The position numbers and the translations under genes are program-made. A DNA stretch of 64,000 bases from Rhabditophanes sp. KR3021 (Eukaryota; Nematoda; Chromadorea; Rhabditida; Alloionematidae), in the NCBI GenBank assembly GCA_963281155.1, contig CAUJLY010000004.1, positions 2,604,001 through 2,668,000 of the forward strand, written 5' to 3'. This document shows, piece by piece, positions 2,868 through 58,145 of the stretch. The notes beneath the pieces are model-generated. The model was not told the origin of the DNA and ran no database searches. It worked only from the letters and a program-made list of their open reading frames with translations. Numbering within the stretch: the first letter of the stretch is position 1; every line of letters begins with the position of its first letter.

Positions 2868-5800
2868 ATGGAACGTCGTTATGCTCCATCAAGCTTTTGT
2901 TTTCCATCCTATCAAGCTCTGGCCATTTTTTTTGCTGTCGTATGCTTGGGTTGTATAACACTGTCCAGTGGTAACGATCAGTCTTTTTACTATCCTGAAA
3001 AATTACATGATGTTATATCAAAGGACACATTGAAAGATCGAATTTGTTTGGAACTACTATCACAGGGGATGACATCAAATTGCCGTTATAGCAAAAACAA
3101 ATTCAGGTGTTGTGCTGTTGGGGCCTCAATTCATCAAATACCTGCTAATTTTACCCAACAACTGCAAGTTTTATTCTTGCTCAATACAAGCATTGAAGCT
3201 ATTACTGTTGAAAGTCTAAAACCATTTCGAAGTTTGCAAGAAATTATCATCTCACATTCCAATCATTTAACAATTGTTGAAGGATCAGCATTTGAACAAC
3301 TGCCAAATCTTTTACGAGTGTATGTTTGACATTAATTTAACTCTTATATCTTTAATATTAATTCCTAAACATTTCTATCTCTAATATCAATGTATTTATT
3401 ACTTCTTGTTTATCATTTTTAGATCGATTACATATTGCCGTAAACTCGAAGAAATTACCGGTTTGACTAAAAAATTACATGCAAATTAAAAACTATTATT
3501 GGGAACGGGCATAAAATTAGAAAAAATGTAAAACCCATATACTATAAGGCAATCAATTTAAATGATTGATGTAAGTTGTGAAGTGCTAGTATATGGATGT
3601 TTTAGGTACATTATTTTGTTTGACTGTCAGGAAGTATCTGAATTAGCTAGTGACTGTTGCAATTTGATAATAGCTGCATACTCGATTCCAAGAGCTTAAT
3701 TAACATGCACGGCAACAACTTTTTCCTTCTTCAGCCAAGCAGCGCTTCATTTTTTAAGATTTAGCGGAATTCCCCTTTCAGCTATTAATTCAGTTTGTGT
3801 GCAATGGTGGTAAACTCGATCTGTGATGCCACCACTAACACCCGCATACACAATCTTGCTCACGAATTCTTGAAAGGACTCATGATTAACGTCTCCCTCA
3901 TTTACAGTATTATGTAAATAGACTGACCATCTTCTTTAACATAATCAAGAACTTTAGAAACTCTTAACTCAGCCATCAGATTGTTCCAGAGGTCAATATT
4001 GTTGTGACTAAGATTCCTTGTGTAGATTTCTAGAACGGCTTTTCCTTGCTTTAACATATGAGCCATCTTCCACTCCCTAGCATCCATCTGACCCACAATT
4101 TGAATTAATGCTGAAACATCATCAGAGTCATAAAGCATACCATTGAGTCAATCATTCATCTTGATTACTTGATGTTGTGTCTCTTCACATACTAGAAGCT
4201 TCATCAACTTTACCAACCTTTATTGGGTCTTCATTTGATATAGAGCTATTTTTTGTCTCATTTTGAAGAAAACAAATCTAATTATAAAGTAATTAGAAAC
4301 CAACCAACTTACTGCAAAAAGACCTTTCATTTTTCAATTATTTTTCAAGACCTTTAAAACTAATTTTAACGAGTCATTTAAAAGTATATAAAATCGGGAT
4401 TTCAACATTAAATACATTTATTTTATAAATATTAATTTAAAAATATTGACAGGTGTCTTATTGAAAAAGAACTTCCGCATGAAATCATTGATTGTTTCTC
4501 ACAATTCACTGAAACGATTACCAGGCTTGGAAATGTCAGAGCATCATCCTCACGTCTTGGATATGATTGATTTTTCCCACAACCACATTGAGTATCTAGG
4601 TGATGGCCATTTAAAATTAATAAAAAGTCGCGTTGTTCGTCTAAACAACAATGAATTGAAAGAAACGGGAGCACAAGTATTTGCCCATTGTCACATACGG
4701 GAATTGCACATGAATAATAATATTGAATTAAAACGAATGTCTAAAAAAGTATTTGACAAATTAGAAGGCTTGCGGTTATTGTAAGATTTTTGTCTCTTTA
4801 GTTATATAAAAGCCACTTTTAGAAACTTATCTTCCACATCAATTACGGAATTACCTATCAATGGCTTACGAAATTTAACTACCCTGTCAATCAAAAATAC
4901 CGTTAAAATTAAACAATTGCCTCCAATATTAACGTTTACCAGACTGACTCGTGCAGACTTTACTTATCCGCACCATTGTTGTCTTTTTAAGTATGCTAAA
5001 AACATGATAGAAAACGAAAAAGTAACCTTTCTCAATAACTACAAGGAAATTCAAAATCGAGTATGCAATAAAGATTTGAAAAAAGCATCTCATAAAAAGA
5101 CAAAACGAAGTGTGGAAAGAAAGGAACGAATTGTTAACATGTTAGCTAATTCATCCCTAGCTTTTACACCTCAAAAACAATATTTGCTTTGGAAACCATT
5201 ATTAGATGCAATGCCAACAATTAAGGAAATTGCTTTAAATTGGGATTTGTTTGATGAGTTGGAAACAGAGGAAGTTGAAGAAGATGATAAGTGCAGTGAT
5301 ACGGCCGTTCAAAATTTCTACCATAATATTGTAAGCTTCATATAATGTGTTTTGTTTAAATTAAGAGTATAATAGGATGAGCTTTATGATAGTTAGACAT
5401 ACTATTGACAAATTATTTATTACAATTTAAAATACAAAACATCAGAAGTATCAACAAACTCGTTGATAATGAGATCTGCTACCTCTCTATTAAGTTGCGA
5501 GTTCATTTCAAAGTAGGGGTTGCCAGAATCCGCGTTTTTGATTTGAGGCTCGAAGGCTCTGATCAGGATCGATTCAATATCTTCAATGACTGCATCCGAT
5601 GATACTTCATTATTAATGCTGGAATGTCATTCTTTCCAAAAGACTTATCCGAATCATATCATTCACGAAGTCCTCCTTTCCATCGAAAAGCTTCTTTAGA
5701 TTAACCTTGTTTTCAAAGTCTTTACAATGTTTCTTTATTCTTGCTTCAAATACTTTAGTTTTGCCAATGTACTTGATAGCATCTTTCACACCACCTACCA

Positions 5801-8800
5801 TCCAATTTTCACCGCGTTTTCTTGGGTCCAGCAATAAATAAAGATGGAAGTCTCCCTTTTTAGTATCCTTGCCTTTGATGACTTTTAAAACTTCTTTTGC
5901 AGATGGTTTTTGATTATATCTCTTGCATTCATCAATGCACTCCTGACAGTCTCTATTTCTGAATCACGAACAATAGTCCTCTTTTTTGCTTGTCGAGCCA
6001 TAATAGTTAATAACATCAAGTATGGCGCGATGTTGTTGCACTAAAATTAAAGACATAATTATTACACTGTTGGAAAAAGCCAACGGCAATAAACCGAGCA
6101 AAGGGTAGACATTTTATTAAGCCAAAAAAACAACAGTGTAAATAAATTAATAAACACAAAATTTGGATGATAACTAAATATATGTTAATTATACAACATA
6201 CACTAATATAATATTAATTAGACGTGTAACCCTATGCCAGATATTTTGAATCCTTGTGAAGATATTGTTGGATACCCTTTTTTGAGAATCATAATTTGGA
6301 TAGTTTGGATATTGGCTATCATTGGAAACATCGGTGTGTGGATTGTTCTTCTTTCAGTTAAAAACAAACGCATGCGAATTCATTATCTTTTCATAATGAC
6401 TCTTTCCTTTGCTGATCTATTAACAGGATGCTATCTCGCCATCTTAGCAATTAAAGACAGTTTGACAGCTAATGAATATTACAACCACGCTGTCGATTGG
6501 CAAACAGGCTACGGCTGCACAATAGCAGGCTTCTTATCTGTTTTTGCATCGGAAATTTCAATAATATCTATGTTTTTAATTGCATTCGAAATTTACTACA
6601 ATACCAGAAATGCCATTTATGGGAAACAAATGAAGAGTCGGTGAGTTATGATTTTTTATATTTATTTAAAAAAATAAGCAATGTGGGAACTAGACATACT
6701 GGTTTATCACTAATAAAGGTTACACATAAATAGCAATGAATATAGTAATAATAAATATGTCATGTATATTACGTTAACAATAAGTATTTAATTCAATTTA
6801 AGACGTTTCTCATTATGTTCTTTGATTTTGACTAAAATGAGTGGGTCTTATTAGTTATATTTCGGGTGTTTATTATATCTATTGCCAAAACTGCCTTTCG
6901 TGCTTCCAAGTCCAAAAACTAATAATAAAGCCCCTGCTTCCTTTTTAGTGGCAGCTCTCTTTGCATTATAGATCTCGCCTCCGCTGGGACTATTATTCAC
7001 AAACTTCTTAGTTGACGCTTTTTTATTTCTAAGTCTTGCTAAATTCTTCTTTGAACATGATTCAAAACACCACCTTTTTCGACAGTCCTCATCTTCCTTC
7101 TCCAAATTTAAACGAGACTGTTTTATTTTGTAGTCCTTTGATTACTTTCCTTCTTTTGGTCATTCAGTCTTAGGGTTAGAATTGGCTGAGGCTGGATCTG
7201 CCTTGATCATATCTATCTCGATTTAGTTTCCCATTAGCCATTACATTGACATATCCGTCAAACAACCATTGCCCATCGTCCTCTTCAGCCACACTTTCTT
7301 TTTGAAAAAACTTTTTCTCCGTTTATTCCATTCTTCATTTGACAATTTCTTGAGATTTTGGGGAGGTTGATCAATAACACGAAATTCCGATTACATTCTT
7401 CCCCTTGAAAGAAGTAACATGTACCCTCCCAAATTGTCGTTCCATTTGATGAAACTCTTTTTCAAAAATGCATGGAGACCGTTTGGAGACATAAAGTAAA
7501 TCTGCCATTACTAAATTAGTGAGTTCTTTCTTCTCAGCTTCCTCGAAGATAAATAAGTATTTGGAACCTTTTTCATGAGATATATTGCAGCCTATGGTAT
7601 TGTCTAAATAAGATGTGATTAATTACTTTTGAATCTACTTATTAGTAAAAAATAGTACTGGCGTTTACCCACGAAAAGAATACAACGCGAAATAAATTAT
7701 CTTTAATTAAACGTCGTTATATCACAATAAATAAAACGAGACTTAGAGTCTTCGATAGAGTGGCCACTTTATGTATGAAGGATAAAGCGGTTAAAGCATG
7801 GGATAATTGGGCTAAAATAATCGGGGAATAAATAATGATAATATGATAACGTGGTCTGTAAAAGGTGGGGACCATTATTTGGAATAACTCAATTACTCAA
7901 CAATGATGAAAACTTAGTGTATAAATTTATCGTCAAGTAATTTTAGAGCGAAAAGGTGGAGGGGTAAAAATCAGATTAAATATTGTTTATCCTAGGAGTT
8001 GATTTTATTGGCTTTCATTTTTAATTTCGGCATTTCCTGGATCATAAGTTGATTAAGAGGTCGATTTAGTTGATAAAAACGGCATAAAATTGATAATAAA
8101 GGTACAAAATTGATTAAAGCAGCATAAGATTGTCAATACAGCATTGTGATTTGATTAGATATATTATACAATACATAATATTTTGAATATAATCATCAGT
8201 TTGTTGGTTAGACTATACCCTTTACAACGGCATACAGCATTATTTATTCGCATAAAGTTTTCAAAAAAATATCATTTTTTCTTGTAATCATTAATTTAAT
8301 TTTAGTTTTGCGTATGGATTGATAACATTTGCAATTGTTTTTGCTTTTACAATGGCTAGTTTCCCGTTAATGGGAATTTCTTCTTATCAAAGAACGTCAA
8401 TTTGTCTGCCCTTAGCAATAGAAAATTATTGGGATCAGGGATATATCATTTTCGGATTGTTTTTCAATTTGACTGCGTTTTTGGGAATGCTATTTTGCTA
8501 TATTTTAATTATTAGATTAATTAAGACGTCCTCAACTCCAAGCCGCCGTGAAGATAGACAAATGCTTATAAGGACTGGTCTTTTAATTGGAGCAGATATG
8601 CTATGCTGGATGCCTACGCTTTTTTTTGGGATAACAAGTGCCTTGAATTTTCCTTTAATGTAAGTTTGTATTTTTATCAGTCTTTTGAAAAGATAAGAGA
8701 AATTTGTATTGTTTCAAAATGTCTTTTTTATTAAAGATAAGACAGAAAAAATGTTGTTGGCTTTTAATAATACTAATATTTTATCATTCAGTTCTCTAAC

Positions 8801-32122: not shown

Positions 32123-34328
32123 TTAGGCATGTGATCTGTCTACTTTTAAACTAGAGAATTGTTTGGAAGTGGCATCAACTAAAGAATCGGTTTGAACTCC
32201 TTGGAGAATTTCGTCATCGGCGGTCATCACCTTGAGAATTGCTTCATCGATTCGATTCCCATATCCTTTGGTGGAATATTCTCTATTGAAACGCTCTCTC
32301 TGGAATTGGTACTTATCATCGTTATCGAGATGTTCCCAGGTGACCTTTTGCATATGATGAATCATAGCGTCAGCTAACAAGTTGGCATCTGGCTCCTTGA
32401 TTTTGGTTCCAGTGATATTTTCAAAGACAGTTTCAGATGGACCACCACTGTCACAGACAATTACTGGTCTCCTCTGATCCAAAGCTTCAATGGGGACGAT
32501 TCCAAAATGCTCATCAGGTGGTGTGTACAAAGTGGTATCGCATTGTCTGTAAAGAGCAAATTTTTCATCCTCAGTCGGGCAGGTAATAAATTCAACCATA
32601 TCTTGAACATCCAACTCAATTACCATCTTTTTCAAAAGGTCGTAATAAATTTTTGATTCGGGAATGTGTGGCATTACGGATCCTGCTAATTGAACTTTGG
32701 CCTTGTATCCTCTCTTCTTTAAGATGGCTAAATCAAACGTTATTTGAAATTAAAAATAAAAACTTACCGGCACCTTCGACAATAAGAATTAATAAAATAT
32801 AAAATAAATTTGAAGTATTTTCAATTAATAAATTTGTTGTTTTTTAAAAGATTTACGTTTTCGTAATAAAATTATCAAATAAATAATTTAATGCCGTCAA
32901 TAGTTCATTAAGACTTTGAACTAAAACTTGAATATTGCCTACGAGCTATTACGTGTCCTATTTAAGATCAAATTTTGCCTATGTTAATCATTCTTAGATT
33001 ATTTTAGTGCTACAATATCGCCTCAACTGGTGTATTTTATATCTGCTGGAAAAGAAAACCCAGAAAAGAATGCGTGAATTTGCTCGTCAAGCCAGTATTA
33101 TGGGAAAACTAAATGCTAGGATCAAAGCAGCTGAAGATGAGAAAACTTGTGACGTCTACTTGCAATTGGACCCATCACTTCTTGATTTCACAGATGAATG
33201 GGACCTTGATTTGGACGAGATTGGCCAAAGCTACAACACCCATAAAAGAACGTGTGAGCATAGGTCAGATTTTAACTTCAATCTCAAATGGCTACTTCCA
33301 TTTAGCGACAAAGAACGATTTGTTCACGAAGTAACTAAGATGGGTAAGAGTTGATTGTTGTAAAAAAGACGTATCCATCAAAGGAAATCGCCGGGATTGT
33401 ACAATCTTAATTAATGCTCTACGTGGACAATTAACCAACTCTGAAAGTGGAAATCCCACTCTCGATTTTGTCAGTCAAATAAATCCTCGAGAAACAGAGA
33501 AGTGGCTCAACTAATCTTAAAAGAGTTCCCATTTGATGATCTCGATGAACGCGCATTATGCAATCTTGCATATTAATATTTTTGTTCCTAAATTTTTTGT
33601 TTTAATAAATATTTTGCATACCTTCGACAATAATGTCAAGTCTTTTTTCAGGCCAAAAGCGATTCATTGACAAGAAAATGTATTGCTTGTTAGCTGGACG
33701 GCACTTTCTACTAACTGGCTTGCAATTTACAGATAATGAATCGACATCACATGGAGGATAGACAACAATGATTTTGTCTCGGTTTACGGTAGGCATCACA
33801 CGGTGGAATGTATCTGCCGTAAAGTTTGAATTGACCATAATAACATCAGTACTCGAGAAGAGATGAGTTTCAAGTAAGCAAATAAGGGAAGAATACCAAC
33901 GATATAAGAAGAAACGTGAAGGAGTAACTAATTGTTGTGGGAAATGGCAGTAAAAGAGAATTTTACATTTTGGAAAACGGAATTTGAGCATTGGCACACA
34001 GGAAGCAGAATGGTCCATGATGATGACGTCAGGATTTAGGTCAGAAGAACAAACCATATGCATACCGAGGGCGGCATTTTGTGAAAACCAATCTCCGGGA
34101 TGACAGGGTACTTTTATTTCACGGATTTCTATAAAATAATAATTTATAATAAGCAAATAAATTTGATTTACCTATTCCTTTAAAATCTTCGTCTTTCCAA
34201 TATTTGTCAATCATAGTAGTGTACCAAATTACTCTATGCCCAGCAGCAGAAAAATGCCTAATTAGGGCAATCGTGCAGCGATCGGAGCCTCCGTTCCATT
34301 GCTCTGGGTGAATGATGACAATTTGCAT
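32123..34328 (-). CDS. ALG2: Alpha-1,3/1,6-mannosyltransferase ALG2
   Basis: Minus-strand exons 34328..34172, 34128..33622, 32773..32768 (6 nt) and 32727..32123 give 424 aa; human ALG2 is 416. ALG2 adds the second and third mannoses to the lipid-linked oligosaccharide on the cytosolic face of the ER. The GT-B fold is clear: IIHPEQWNGGSDRCTIALIR (family HPDLGVGGAERL), DHSASCVPMLKFRFPKCKIL, FYCHFPQQLVTPS, VIMVNSNFTADTFH, NRFWPEKRLDII, then the donor-site EHFGIVPIEALDQRRPVIV followed by CDSGGPSE (EX7E). The 6-nt exon GTGCCG is required: IVEG-A-AILKKRGYKAKV is in phase only with it. The 848-nt intron beside it is a transposon-derived gain. A second minus-strand frame overlaps the start (see 34262-34642). 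Confidence 0.93.
32772..33633 (+). mobile_element. Transposon-derived new intron in ALG2 with 14-bp target-site duplication
   Basis: On the ALG2 strand the 14-mer TTATTGTCGAAGGT stands at 33633-33620 and again at 32785-32772. The intron starts with the GT of the first copy (33621) and ends with the AG of the second (32774), so splicing leaves exactly one copy in the mRNA. The insert itself (32786-33619, about 834 bp) carries a plus-strand frame, antisense to ALG2: a 348-bp stretch (33007-33354) with RMREFARQASIMGKLNARIK. In a shifted frame it continues to KTYPSKEIAG, TILINALRGQLTNSES and LDFVSQINPRETEK. The latter recurs in an arrestin intron at 57.25-57.45 kb. No family recognised; AT-rich ends with no obvious terminal inverted repeat. 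Confidence 0.85.
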
Positions 34329-55597: not shown

Positions 55598-58145
55598 TTA
55601 ATTGAGCAAATTTTGAACAGTCGGAGATTCGTACTCATTTCCTCGTAACCTCAATCTAGCAATTTCCTCATAAAAGACATCGTCAATTGATTTGCTGTTT
55701 AAATTATTGCCCGTTTCGATTGCTTTTGGAGTTTCTTCTTTGTCTAGAACTGGCTCTTCTGGGTCAGAGTCCCATTGAATTAAGTCAATTTCCTCTTCAA
55801 TCTTTTCTCCATTTAATCCATTTGACGAATTAGGCAGACCATCTGAAAAGCTTTTCTTTGTGTCTACTGGGCTATCAATTGGTTTTGGATGAGTCAGAGT
55901 AAACGGAAGCTCAGCTACAATGTCCCCACCTAAACAGTCATAAAGGTTAACATTATTAAAAGTTTGATTCTTTTACTCGAAGCGAGTAATTTGTGATGAG
56001 GTTCGATCCAATTAAAATGTATTTACATTCCAATTATATCATATAAATACATATGCAAATCATTGTGCGTTATATCCAATACATCTTATTAGATCAAGAC
56101 CATTATTAACTTTTTCTTATTGTTTTACTAATAATCACCTTCTTTGATCTCAAAGTCTACTTTAATTTAAAATATTTACATACAATTGTCTCAATTAGCA
56201 AAGAGTTTTGAAAAAAGAGTCTTCTATGACCGTCTAATTATATCAGATATGTTTTATCTGATCATTGCAACTACGAGATGTTAAGAAAAAGCAACAATAG
56301 TTATGAAGAAAAGCCAAAAACAGATCTAACTTAGACGTGACCCAAAAATAACAAGAAGTACAACCATCCTTCAAGATAATAGAGTTGAAGGTAAGTATCA
56401 AACAAGTAAAGCTGTTCAATATCATGACTTTTTTATGGGTGATTCGAAAAACTTGTCAAATTTCAAAGCAAATAGAATGAATAAAGGTGAAGTGAAGGCA
56501 GGGGAATTAAAATATTATCATTGAATAGCTAGGAAGCATTTGACATTGTCAAGAGAATTAGTGAATTAACCCTTATACAACTTTTTGCCAAAATATCTTC
56601 TAATGTCATGCCTTTTTGATTCTATAATTTTGATTGTTTTGTTACCTACAAATAAAAACTAGATTAGCATTAAGAGAGATCAACAAACCTAAAGCGCCGC
56701 CGAAGTAGGCTTTTACTCTTGCCTTGTATTGGACAACAATGCCCAAATTTTCTTTGTTTGTGGTTTTAGTTATAATTGTAGAACTAGCTAAATTAGTGTC
56801 CTCATGCTTTAATTGACCATCCAAAGCCAAACCTCTTTTGTCTCTATTCTTTTCGAGTAATGGCATCAATGAGTACACTTTCGACAAAGTAGCTCCAGGG
56901 CCCACAGGGAAGCCTTCAGTGCTTTCAATTTTAGCAACATCACAATTGTAGGAAGCTGTTGTAAACAAACAAATATCAGCCGTCTGCACAACAGCTACTT
57001 TTATCTTTTTGACTGAGCGATTGGAGTTGTTTTGGATGTGAACGTTAATTGCGATTGATTCACCATGATAATACATCTATAAACAAATTAACCAGTAACA
57101 ATTAGATAGAAGAGGAAACTTACTTCACGATCCAAAGACATTTCCAAATGCATTAGTCCTGGAAACACATGAAAAATAAGTTTTTAGATCAGCTGTCTAT
57201 TAATTTTGTATTTAGTTGAATACTAATTATTTATATATCTTATCAAAACGGAGTACCCATCCAAAAAGATTGCTAAAAACGTGGAAGCCATTCTCCTCAA
57301 TGCACTTGGCCACCAACTCACCAACAGCCAAAGTAGGAAGTCATCCTTAGATTTTGTATCGGCTATGAACCCTCAATTAAACTCGCGAGAATTAATTCTC
57401 AAGGACTTCTCAGAATGTGGATGCGAGGAGTACATTACGGAGTATTAAGATGTTTTTGTGTTTAAACGGATTTTTAACAATAAATTTTTCGGAGAAATTA
57501 CCTGGGCTCATAATAAATTCCTTGCTGACATCAATCATTGGTTGTGGTTTTTTGACCCACGGAGCATATGTCAATTTCCTAATAGCTAATCGGACGCTAT
57601 TATGCTTTTTCGGTTTATCATTAGCATCAACAGATCCCTCGACATATGTCTTAAGTTCGTAATCTACACCACATGGTTTCCCGGTATCACCAGTAGCTGG
57701 CTGGAGTGTAACAGAAGACGCAGAGAAGGGTGCAATTTCAAACCAAAAAGGATATGCATTGACACCGAGTTTCTTTTTTAACCTCTCCTGCAGCCTCGTC
57801 AATGGTCTATCTTTGAAAGTGTCTCCCATCGGAAAAACTTGAGCTTGCTCCGAAATTAAGTCTTTTCTAAAGGTTAATCCTAATACATCTAAATCTTCTC
57901 GTCCATACCGGAAAGCTGCCAGCAAATGTACCGTTATTTTTTTACCTGCAGTGATATATTCATCATCAATAAGCACCATACCATCAACTAAATCTACATA
58001 ATCACCTCTATCAATGAAGTCTCTCCGACCTAGGTACGTTGTTATCTTGCCATTTGGACTCGTCTTTTTAAAAACACTAAAATGTGATTATTAGGAGATT
58101 ATTATTAATTGCCTCAACTTACCGTGTTCCACCTTTACCGTTCAT
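55598..58145 (-). CDS. Beta-arrestin
   Basis: Minus-strand exons 58145..58123, 58076..57502, 57158..57124, 57076..56689 and 55929..55598 give 450 aa. Arrestins bind phosphorylated, active GPCRs, stop G-protein signalling and recruit clathrin and AP2. N-domain: [37 protein letters not shown] and [19 protein letters not shown]. The polar-core Asp region ([14 protein letters not shown]) and [13 protein letters not shown] are present. C-domain: [40 protein letters not shown]. The tail has DLIQWD (clathrin-box-like) and [15 protein letters not shown], which fits the AP2-appendage motif (D/E)xxFxx(F/L)xxxR. Introns 2 and 4 are long (343 and 759 nt) and hold plus-strand remnants. Confidence 0.95.
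56310..56516 (+). pseudogene. Decayed ORF in arrestin intron 4
   Basis: Plus strand, antisense to arrestin. After MKKSQKQI and a stop, a frame reads [40 protein letters not shown] and [20 protein letters not shown]. It is protein-like but unrecognised. The host intron (56688..55930) is bordered by TTTAGGT on both sides. Confidence 0.4.
57243..57450 (+). pseudogene. Remnant of the ALG2-insert family in arrestin intron 2
   Basis: Plus strand, antisense to arrestin. The frame [54 protein letters not shown] and CEEYITEY ends at TAA (57450). It aligns with KTYPSKEIAG...TILINALRGQLTNSES...LDFVSQINPRETEK inside the ALG2 insert at 33360-33500. Both are followed by a T-rich stretch and AATAAA. Only the C-terminal part is present here (host intron is 343 nt). 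Confidence 0.65.

What the first reader, a model, noticed from the sequence alone, without database searches (positions are those of the whole stretch)
32768..33633. Recently gained intron in ALG2: 14-bp target-site duplication supplies both splice sites
The 14-mer TTATTGTCGAAGGT occurs on the ALG2 strand at both ends of the 848-nt intron. The 5' copy provides the GT (donor) and the 3' copy the AG (acceptor), so splicing leaves one copy and restores IVEG-A-AILKKRG. The gain lies 6 nt from an ordinary 40-nt intron and leaves a 6-nt exon (GTGCCG). Seen directly: the repeat and the phase. Established: introners create introns by insertion at AGGT with duplication of the target. Inference: the insert is a mobile element that acts as an introner.
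Basis: partly seen in the sequence, partly recalled or inferred. Interest (0 to 1): 0.88.

Follow-up and report, generated by a model that had tools for sequence, protein, structure and literature searches.

The report
Mobile introns carrying antisense nuclease genes
An extra intron in a worm's ALG2 gene belongs to a large family of mobile introns that carry, on their opposite strand, the remains of a DNA-cutting enzyme gene, which suggests that an animal can gain introns from elements bearing their own nuclease.

Summary
The genome fits Rhabditophanes diutinus KR3021 (nematode). TTATTGTCGAAGGT flanks an 834-nt insert in ALG2, making an 848-nt intron (32774-33621, - strand). The insert belongs to a dispersed family. 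In 17 of 24 examined copies reading frames place both splice sites at the element's ends. Within loci the 5' exon end matches the intron's own 3' end beyond chance (-9 to -3: P 0.0001; without ALG2 about 0.0015). So a target duplication marks the family, and the introner reading is supported.

One intact 443-aa copy lies antisense inside a ryanodine receptor intron. At least 139 loci match, three of them in this window. Nearest coding flanks are antisense 43 to 8 in 39 fetched loci. Copies show protein-level constraint. No Rfam match was found. The nearest published thing is the viral "shintron" (2025).

Not supported: that the gain is recent; that the duplication supplies GT in general; the 6-nt exon, which the KR3021 ALG2 protein lacks. 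That the nuclease drives movement is inferred.

The parts
32774..33621 (-). 848-nt spliceosomal intron of ALG2 = the inserted element plus duplicated target bases
   Evidence: reading frame restored; copies elsewhere end at splice sites
33620..33633 (-). upstream (exonic) copy of the 14-bp target duplication
32772..32785 (-). downstream copy of the 14-bp duplication; contains the AG acceptor
   Evidence: family-wide within-locus match
32786..33619 (-). 834-bp inserted element (introner), given on the strand on which it is spliced
33160..33546 (+). remains of the GIY-YIG nuclease gene, antisense to ALG2; four stops inside the match
   Evidence: (E 1.4e-31 to the L011 copy)
32768..32773 (-). possible 6-nt exon GTGCCG; absent from the KR3021 protein
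32728..32767 (-). ordinary 40-nt intron next to it
33622..34128 (-). ALG2 exon upstream of the element (its start read by eye)
57159..57501 (-). second family member: 343-nt intron of an arrestin gene, SPG|LMHLEM
   Evidence: Arrestin_C runs across the junction; DNA similarity to L093 runs from about 11 nt after the donor to the acceptor
57236..57412 (+). GIY-YIG gene remnant antisense in the arrestin intron
5331..6221 (+). third family member: 891-nt intron of a rhodopsin-type GPCR gene (LRR part read by eye), HNI|TCNPMPDILN
   Evidence: 7tm_1 downstream of the junction
5420..5963 (-). GIY-YIG gene remnant antisense in the GPCR intron

Best explanation
The ALG2 insert is a decayed copy of a mobile spliceosomal intron. 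It inserts into exons at sites resembling TTGRAG^G, duplicates roughly 9-14 bp of target (14 in ALG2), and is spliced out: the AG lies in the downstream target copy, the GT is made of a G at the target plus element sequence, and the branch-point-like TTATTAAT is the element's own. In full-length copies the opposite strand carries a gene for a two-domain GIY-YIG nuclease with zinc-finger-like motifs. Shown by sequence: element ends at the splice sites in the curated copies, locus-specific target duplication, antisense nuclease remains, protein-level constraint between copies. Inferred: that this nuclease cuts the target and drives the spread in the manner of a homing endonuclease (perhaps one nick per domain giving a stagger of about 14 nt), followed by copying of the intron into the break.
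For: Family: 47 BLAST matches including the insert itself; 139 distinct loci among the 150 scored of 550 candidates for the nuclease part. Intron = element: in 16 of the 17 curated copies a TTATTAAT-like motif lies 5-17 nt before the AG (L009 has lost it), and the donor lies at the other shared end. Of 24 subfamily copies frames fixed both sites in 17. Ten joined proteins were tested: in 7 of 10 a Pfam domain runs across the junction, and eIF4A-III (L009) and IDH3-gamma (L018) chains align without a gap at the junction. Duplication: within-locus matches at -9..-3 are 63 of 119 against 45.9 on permutation (P 0.0001); without ALG2 56 of 112 against 43.0 (P 0.0014). Without ALG2, -12..-3 gives P 0.0005, -16..-13 gives P 0.78, and only the register aligned on the splice sites is significant among seven offsets; in the 8 copies whose junctions are domain- or structure-verified P is 0.0016. 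Nuclease: intact 443-aa ORF in L086, PF01541 26.3 bits against cut-off 22.6, two stretches, antisense in a 2022-nt intron of a ryanodine receptor gene (E 3.8e-32, no gap at the junction). Orientation in 39 fetched loci at threshold 12: antisense 43, same strand 8, undetermined 27. Ka/Ks 0.11-0.62 in the 21 of 30 listed pairs where Ks could be computed. No Rfam family in 10 sources.
Against: No RNA-seq was available, so splicing is deduced from frames. The ALG2 copy's own 94-aa ORF has no Pfam match, and the other copies tested reach GIY-YIG only below cut-off or not at all. Structure models are poor (pLDDT 51 and 61) and the fold searches gave nothing. Junctions were curated by eye: 7 of 24 were dropped and the script's first choice was overridden in 10 of 17. 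In the 7 where it was kept, P for -9..-3 is 0.025, and without ALG2 (6 copies) 0.15, not significant; positions -12..-10 alone without ALG2 give P 0.07, so the length of the duplication is soft. If coding segments of both strands within 250 nt of the nuclease hit are ignored, the orientation count falls to 30:7 (thresholds 9 and 15: 32:15 and 26:6). The Ka/Ks pairs are the 30 with the highest protein identity and were chosen for open frames, which lowers Ka/Ks. One intact ORF (L097) was not seen inside an intron and is not in the orientation count. No experiment or empty allele shows movement by the nuclease.
Confidence: 0.66

Rival explanations
1. The introns are moved by another machinery, for example reverse transcription at a nick by a LINE or Penelope-like element acting in trans, and the GIY-YIG gene is cargo or only helps to nick. 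The introner nature stands, the engine differs.
For: A duplication of about 14 bp fits target-primed reverse transcription (recalled); degenerate tandem repeats at the end next to the antisense stop codon in L011 and L018 (read by eye); a LINE-endonuclease-like ORF beside L097, read by eye; Penelope elements carry GIY-YIG with a reverse transcriptase.
Against: No reverse transcriptase domain in the 443-aa or 479-aa intact ORFs; the nuclease gene shows constraint. The genome was not searched for an RT or transposase element with the same ends.
Confidence: 0.22
2. An ordinary transposable element that carries a GIY-YIG gene settled inside introns that already existed; antisense orientation was merely tolerated.
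For: Antisense copies in introns are better tolerated in general (recalled); some copies are fragments.
Against: Both element ends coincide with splice sites in 17 curated copies and the duplication crosses the exon-intron border in register.
Confidence: 0.07
3. The ALG2 case alone is a local duplication of 14 exon bases with filler DNA, unrelated to mobile introns.
For: The exact 14-bp repeat.
Against: The filler is a multicopy family with the same ends at other introns.
Confidence: 0.02
4. Clade-specific host nuclease genes nested in introns spread with their host introns for host benefit, not as selfish elements.
For: Protein constraint; intact copy in L086.
Against: Many of the listed matches hold stop codons and sit in unrelated genes, and the introns show target duplications.
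Confidence: 0.03

Closest known systems
Spliceosomal homing introns ('shintrons') of mirusviruses (PMC12768974, passages seen)
   Same: GT-AG introns that hold endonuclease genes, GIY-YIG among them, without group I/II signatures
   Different: Those are viral and favour particular virion genes; here an animal nuclear genome, unrelated host genes, a target duplication, an antisense gene with two GIY-YIG domains, and many decayed copies. The passages I saw do not give the strand of the viral genes.
Introners (PMC9860276, first part of the text and passages seen)
   Same: Similar introns at many sites with similarity up to both splice sites; target duplications; splice sites partly taken from the target
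   Different: The paper speaks of non-autonomous elements, cites 3-9 bp repeats for earlier families, finds introners in only two animal groups, and its main text never uses the word nematode; here the element carries a nuclease gene and, in ALG2, a 14-bp duplication
Penelope-like elements (PMC3846280, passages seen)
   Same: GIY-YIG endonuclease, target duplications
   Different: No reverse transcriptase found here; two GIY-YIG domains and zinc-finger-like motifs in the intact L086 copy; copies are introns
LEM-3/ANKLE1-type GIY-YIG (PF22945)
   Same: Weak similarity (E 0.002 and 0.0025)
   Different: Below the curated cut-off; no LEM or ankyrin family was listed for the intact copy

Membership tests
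Introner | Several introns of one genome alike up to both splice sites | tested here: met
Introner | Target duplication specific to each locus | tested here: met
   17 of 24 subfamily copies, junctions curated by eye; not significant in the 6 uncurated copies without ALG2
Introner | Spliced in RNA | not testable with these tools
   no RNA-seq; frames and domains across junctions only
Introner | Absent at orthologous sites of relatives (gain) | not testable with these tools
   no related nematode genomes held
Introner (DNA-transposon type) | Terminal inverted repeats | tested here: not met
   ALG2 copy only; such repeats are not obligatory
Shintron | Spliceosomal intron containing a homing-type endonuclease gene | tested here: met
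   L086, (intact); ALG2, arrestin and GPCR copies only remnants
Shintron | No group I/II intron signature | tested here: met
   Rfam gathering thresholds, 10 sources
Shintron | Preference for particular target genes | tested here: not met
   unrelated host proteins in the tested copies
Shintron | Homing shown or alleles with and without the intron | not testable with these tools
   one assembly only
GIY-YIG nuclease | Pfam PF01541 above curated cut-off | tested here: met
   L086 26.3 bits against 22.6; the other copies tested are below cut-off or without match
GIY-YIG nuclease | GIY-YIG fold | tested here: inconclusive
   low-confidence models, no match
Penelope-like element | Reverse transcriptase in the same ORF | tested here: not met

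The most novel reading that the evidence does not exclude
An animal genome holds an autonomous introner: a spliceosomal intron that encodes its own tandem GIY-YIG nuclease on the opposite strand and uses it to cut exonic TTGRAG^G sites and copy itself into unrelated genes, with one nick per domain producing the 14-bp duplication seen in ALG2. Introners and homing introns would then be one continuum, and part of this genome's introns would be descendants of the element.
Probability: 0.45. Interest if true: 0.93.

Novelty: new variant of a known kind. Interest (0 to 1): 0.86.

Why it matters
How spliceosomal introns are gained is a long-standing question. Introners are reported from only two animal groups, a survey of 104 nematode genomes could not find source sequences for the gains it detected in Caenorhabditis and reports no gains in Strongyloididae, and endonuclease-bearing spliceosomal introns were announced in 2025 for viruses, said there not to have been seen before. 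A family that joins the two, in a nematode kept on bacterial plates, would make the mechanism testable: cleavage of a defined target, splicing, and empty against filled sites between strains.

Tried and rejected
The pattern, with up to 3 mismatches, gave 22 places against 1 for the control pattern read backwards. Structure prediction of the 443-aa ORF and of its C-terminal 160 residues gave low confidence, and Foldseek and VIA-align gave no meaningful match. Protein searches: single sequence none at E<=0.001; profile 4 hits, all Rhabditophanes KR3021, three of the four under names that look spurious (DUF695, SBDS_C, GLOBIN). The viral-contig search could not start, so viral relatives were not looked for. 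Phase bias (15 of 17 in phase 1) was considered as a sign of targeting, but a GAAG^G motif in coding DNA already gives 64% phase 1 (P 0.026), so I do not lean on it. The L021 junction (MNIG|GEVL) has an upstream exon that does not join in frame and is the weakest of the 17; without it and ALG2 the test at -9..-3 gives P 0.0024. L009 has lost the acceptor-side motif and its acceptor was set from the protein.

Rows dropped and rules that lean: L015, L017, L028, L068, L069, L071 and L091 were left out of the duplication test because their donors could not be fixed by frame. The script's first junction was overridden in 10 of 17 (L009, L011, L012, L016, L018, L019, L020, L021, L026, L067). The first orientation count (47:4, with 27 undetermined; 54:5 and 40:5 at the other thresholds) ignored same-strand segments within 250 nt of the nuclease hit as the element's own frame, which favours antisense. 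With only overlapping segments ignored it is 43:8 (50:9, 40:5), and with both strands ignored within 250 nt 30:7 (32:15, 26:6). Context was judged only for the 39 fetched loci with a nuclease hit (chosen by similarity, not by context), not for the other loci of the 139; L097 was fetched later and is not counted. Of the ten joined proteins two had no Pfam match (L012, L014) and L009 matched only downstream of the junction in Pfam. One joined piece (L070) had no match among solved structures.

Not in print: the listings showed no report of this in Rhabditophanes or of nuclease-bearing spliceosomal introns in animals; I read passages of five of the listed papers. The library lacks most subscription papers; a 2025 PNAS paper on introners and horizontal transfer is recalled and was not seen.

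Full report
What was checked. The 14-mer and the 848-nt spacing are real and not expected by chance. The gene is ALG2. The genome has 44,845,725 bases in 6 contigs. The size, the number and lengths of scaffolds, and an ALG2 protein identical within the shared exons to that of KR3021 apart from two residues, fit Rhabditophanes diutinus KR3021 v.2 (PMC10676810, passages seen). The tools give the genome no name, so this is an inference.

The insert is a family. BLAST of the insert against its own genome gave 47 matches, itself included and some of them pieces of one locus. Twenty loci were fetched; in gene-sense orientation the shared sequence begins at or near a donor and ends shortly before an acceptor in most copies. 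A further 20 loci were fetched from the longer lists.

Intron equals element. I scored junctions by reading frame and splice-site fit in 24 subfamily copies. For 17 a junction could be fixed by frame, in 10 of them against the script's first choice. The open frames on both sides join (ALG2). Joined proteins from ten of these were searched: seven have a Pfam domain that runs across the junction (M41 peptidase, protein kinase, astacin, isocitrate dehydrogenase, 2-oxoacid dehydrogenase acyltransferase, beta-helix, AAA). One (L009) matches Pfam only downstream but aligns without a gap to eIF4A-III. The isocitrate dehydrogenase piece aligns without a gap at the junction to the IDH3 gamma chain. Two (L012, L014) have no Pfam match; their names (UNC-45, fatty acid transport protein) are recalled. 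L070 had no solved-structure match. Two introns, L016 and L019, start with GC.

The duplication is a property of the family. Comparing the last bases of the 5' exon with the last bases of the intron, position by position, matches within a locus exceed those between loci: at -9 to -3, 63 of 119 against a permuted mean of 45.9, P 0.0001; without ALG2 56 of 112 against 43.0, P 0.0014. With all 17 copies each position from -12 to -3 shows an excess. Without ALG2, -12 to -3 gives P 0.0005, -12 to -10 alone P 0.07, -16 to -13 P 0.78, and of seven offsets only the one aligned on the splice sites is significant (P 0.0017). In the 8 copies with domain- or structure-verified junctions P is 0.0016; in the 7 with the script's own junction 0.025, and in those without ALG2 0.15. 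The method is modelled on the one used for introners (PMC9860276, passages). ALG2's exact repeat, -12 to +2, is thus the best-preserved example of a duplication that has decayed elsewhere; its usual length is firm to about 9 bp and soft beyond. The second base of the donor is usually the element's, because 11 of 17 downstream exons do not have T there.

What the element carries. On the strand opposite to the host gene there are protein-coding remains. Of six open-frame pieces tested, two match GIY-YIG models weakly (LEM-3_GIY-YIG E 0.002 in L019 and 0.0025 in L015, GIY-YIG E 0.006 in L015) and four do not; five further pieces match PF01541 below its cut-off. A 157-aa query hit 550 candidate places of which 150 were scored, all at E below 1e-7, 139 distinct loci when merged at 3 kb. 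One copy, L086, has an open 509-codon frame with an ATG giving 443 aa, two GIY-YIG stretches, 26.3 bits against a cut-off of 22.6, and two zinc-finger-like motifs (read by eye). It lies antisense in a 2022-nt intron of a ryanodine receptor gene: the joined exons match RyR chains, E 3.8e-32, with no gap at the junction. The donor is 101 nt from the antisense stop codon. A second intact frame, L097, was not seen inside an intron. Ka/Ks between copies is 0.11-0.62 in 21 of the 30 listed pairs (Ks could not be computed in 9), and third codon positions vary most in 29 of 30, tied in one. The 30 are the pairs with the highest protein identity, and open frames were chosen, which lowers the ratio.

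Orientation. A codon model trained on 46 long ORFs was used to find the nearest coding segment on each side of the nuclease remains in 39 fetched loci. Ignoring only segments that overlap the remains, 43 sides are antisense, 8 same strand, 27 undetermined at threshold 12 (50:9 and 40:5 at thresholds 9 and 15). Ignoring both strands within 250 nt gives 30:7 (32:15, 26:6). A first rule that ignored only same-strand segments near the remains gave 47:4 and leans towards antisense. In this window all three copies found by tblastn lie antisense in introns: ALG2, an arrestin gene and a rhodopsin-type GPCR gene. The arrestin intron and L093 are alike at DNA level almost from donor to acceptor.

Relatives. 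No protein at E<=0.001 for the single sequence; a profile found four fragments, all from Rhabditophanes KR3021. No Rfam family was found in ten sources including the window, so no group I or II intron signature. Structure models were too poor to help.

Interpretation. The best reading is an introner that bears, or once bore, its own GIY-YIG nuclease. That the element creates introns I hold at about 0.9; that the nuclease drives its movement at about 0.6. The nearest published relatives are the shintrons of mirusviruses and introners. It is like both and fully neither: no preference for particular genes in the copies tested, and a nuclease gene that the introner passages seen here do not describe.

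Age. The ALG2 copy is not clearly young: its nearest copies are 76-81% identical over the long matches and its nuclease frame holds four stops. Its perfect duplication may be luck. Rhabditophanes diutinus is said to reproduce only by meiotic parthenogenesis, which would starve a homing element of new targets; this is a thought, not a result.

Limits. 

Noticed in passing
G000 contig C6 (11.2 Mb): Only 6 of the 139 nuclease loci lie on C6, 34.7 expected by length (P 1e-10; loci from a capped list). By number and length C6 may be R. diutinus Chr6, which PMC10676810 calls syntenic to the S. ratti X chromosome; that match is my inference.
   Followed up: partly
L011, L018, donor end of the element: Degenerate tandem repeats of roughly 17-30 nt, read by eye, between donor and antisense stop codon.
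   Followed up: no
L097:81-1610: Second intact GIY-YIG frame (509 codons, 479 aa taken from 171) without a clear first GIY-YIG domain (one stretch, below cut-off), near a LINE-endonuclease-like ORF read by eye.
   Followed up: partly
UniRef proteins P0073, P0074, P0076 of KR3021: Fragments of the nuclease family are named DUF695, SBDS_C and GLOBIN proteins.
   Followed up: no
window 32768-32773: If skipped, ALG2 loses two residues in a conserved stretch (IVEGAAIL to IVEAIL), as in the KR3021 protein.
   Followed up: partly
L016, L019: Two of the 17 curated element introns use GC donors.
   Followed up: no
G000:C3:396736-396945: Best PF01541 match of the genome (56 bits, 220-aa frame), probably the host's own GIY-YIG gene (SLX1-like, recalled).
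   Followed up: no
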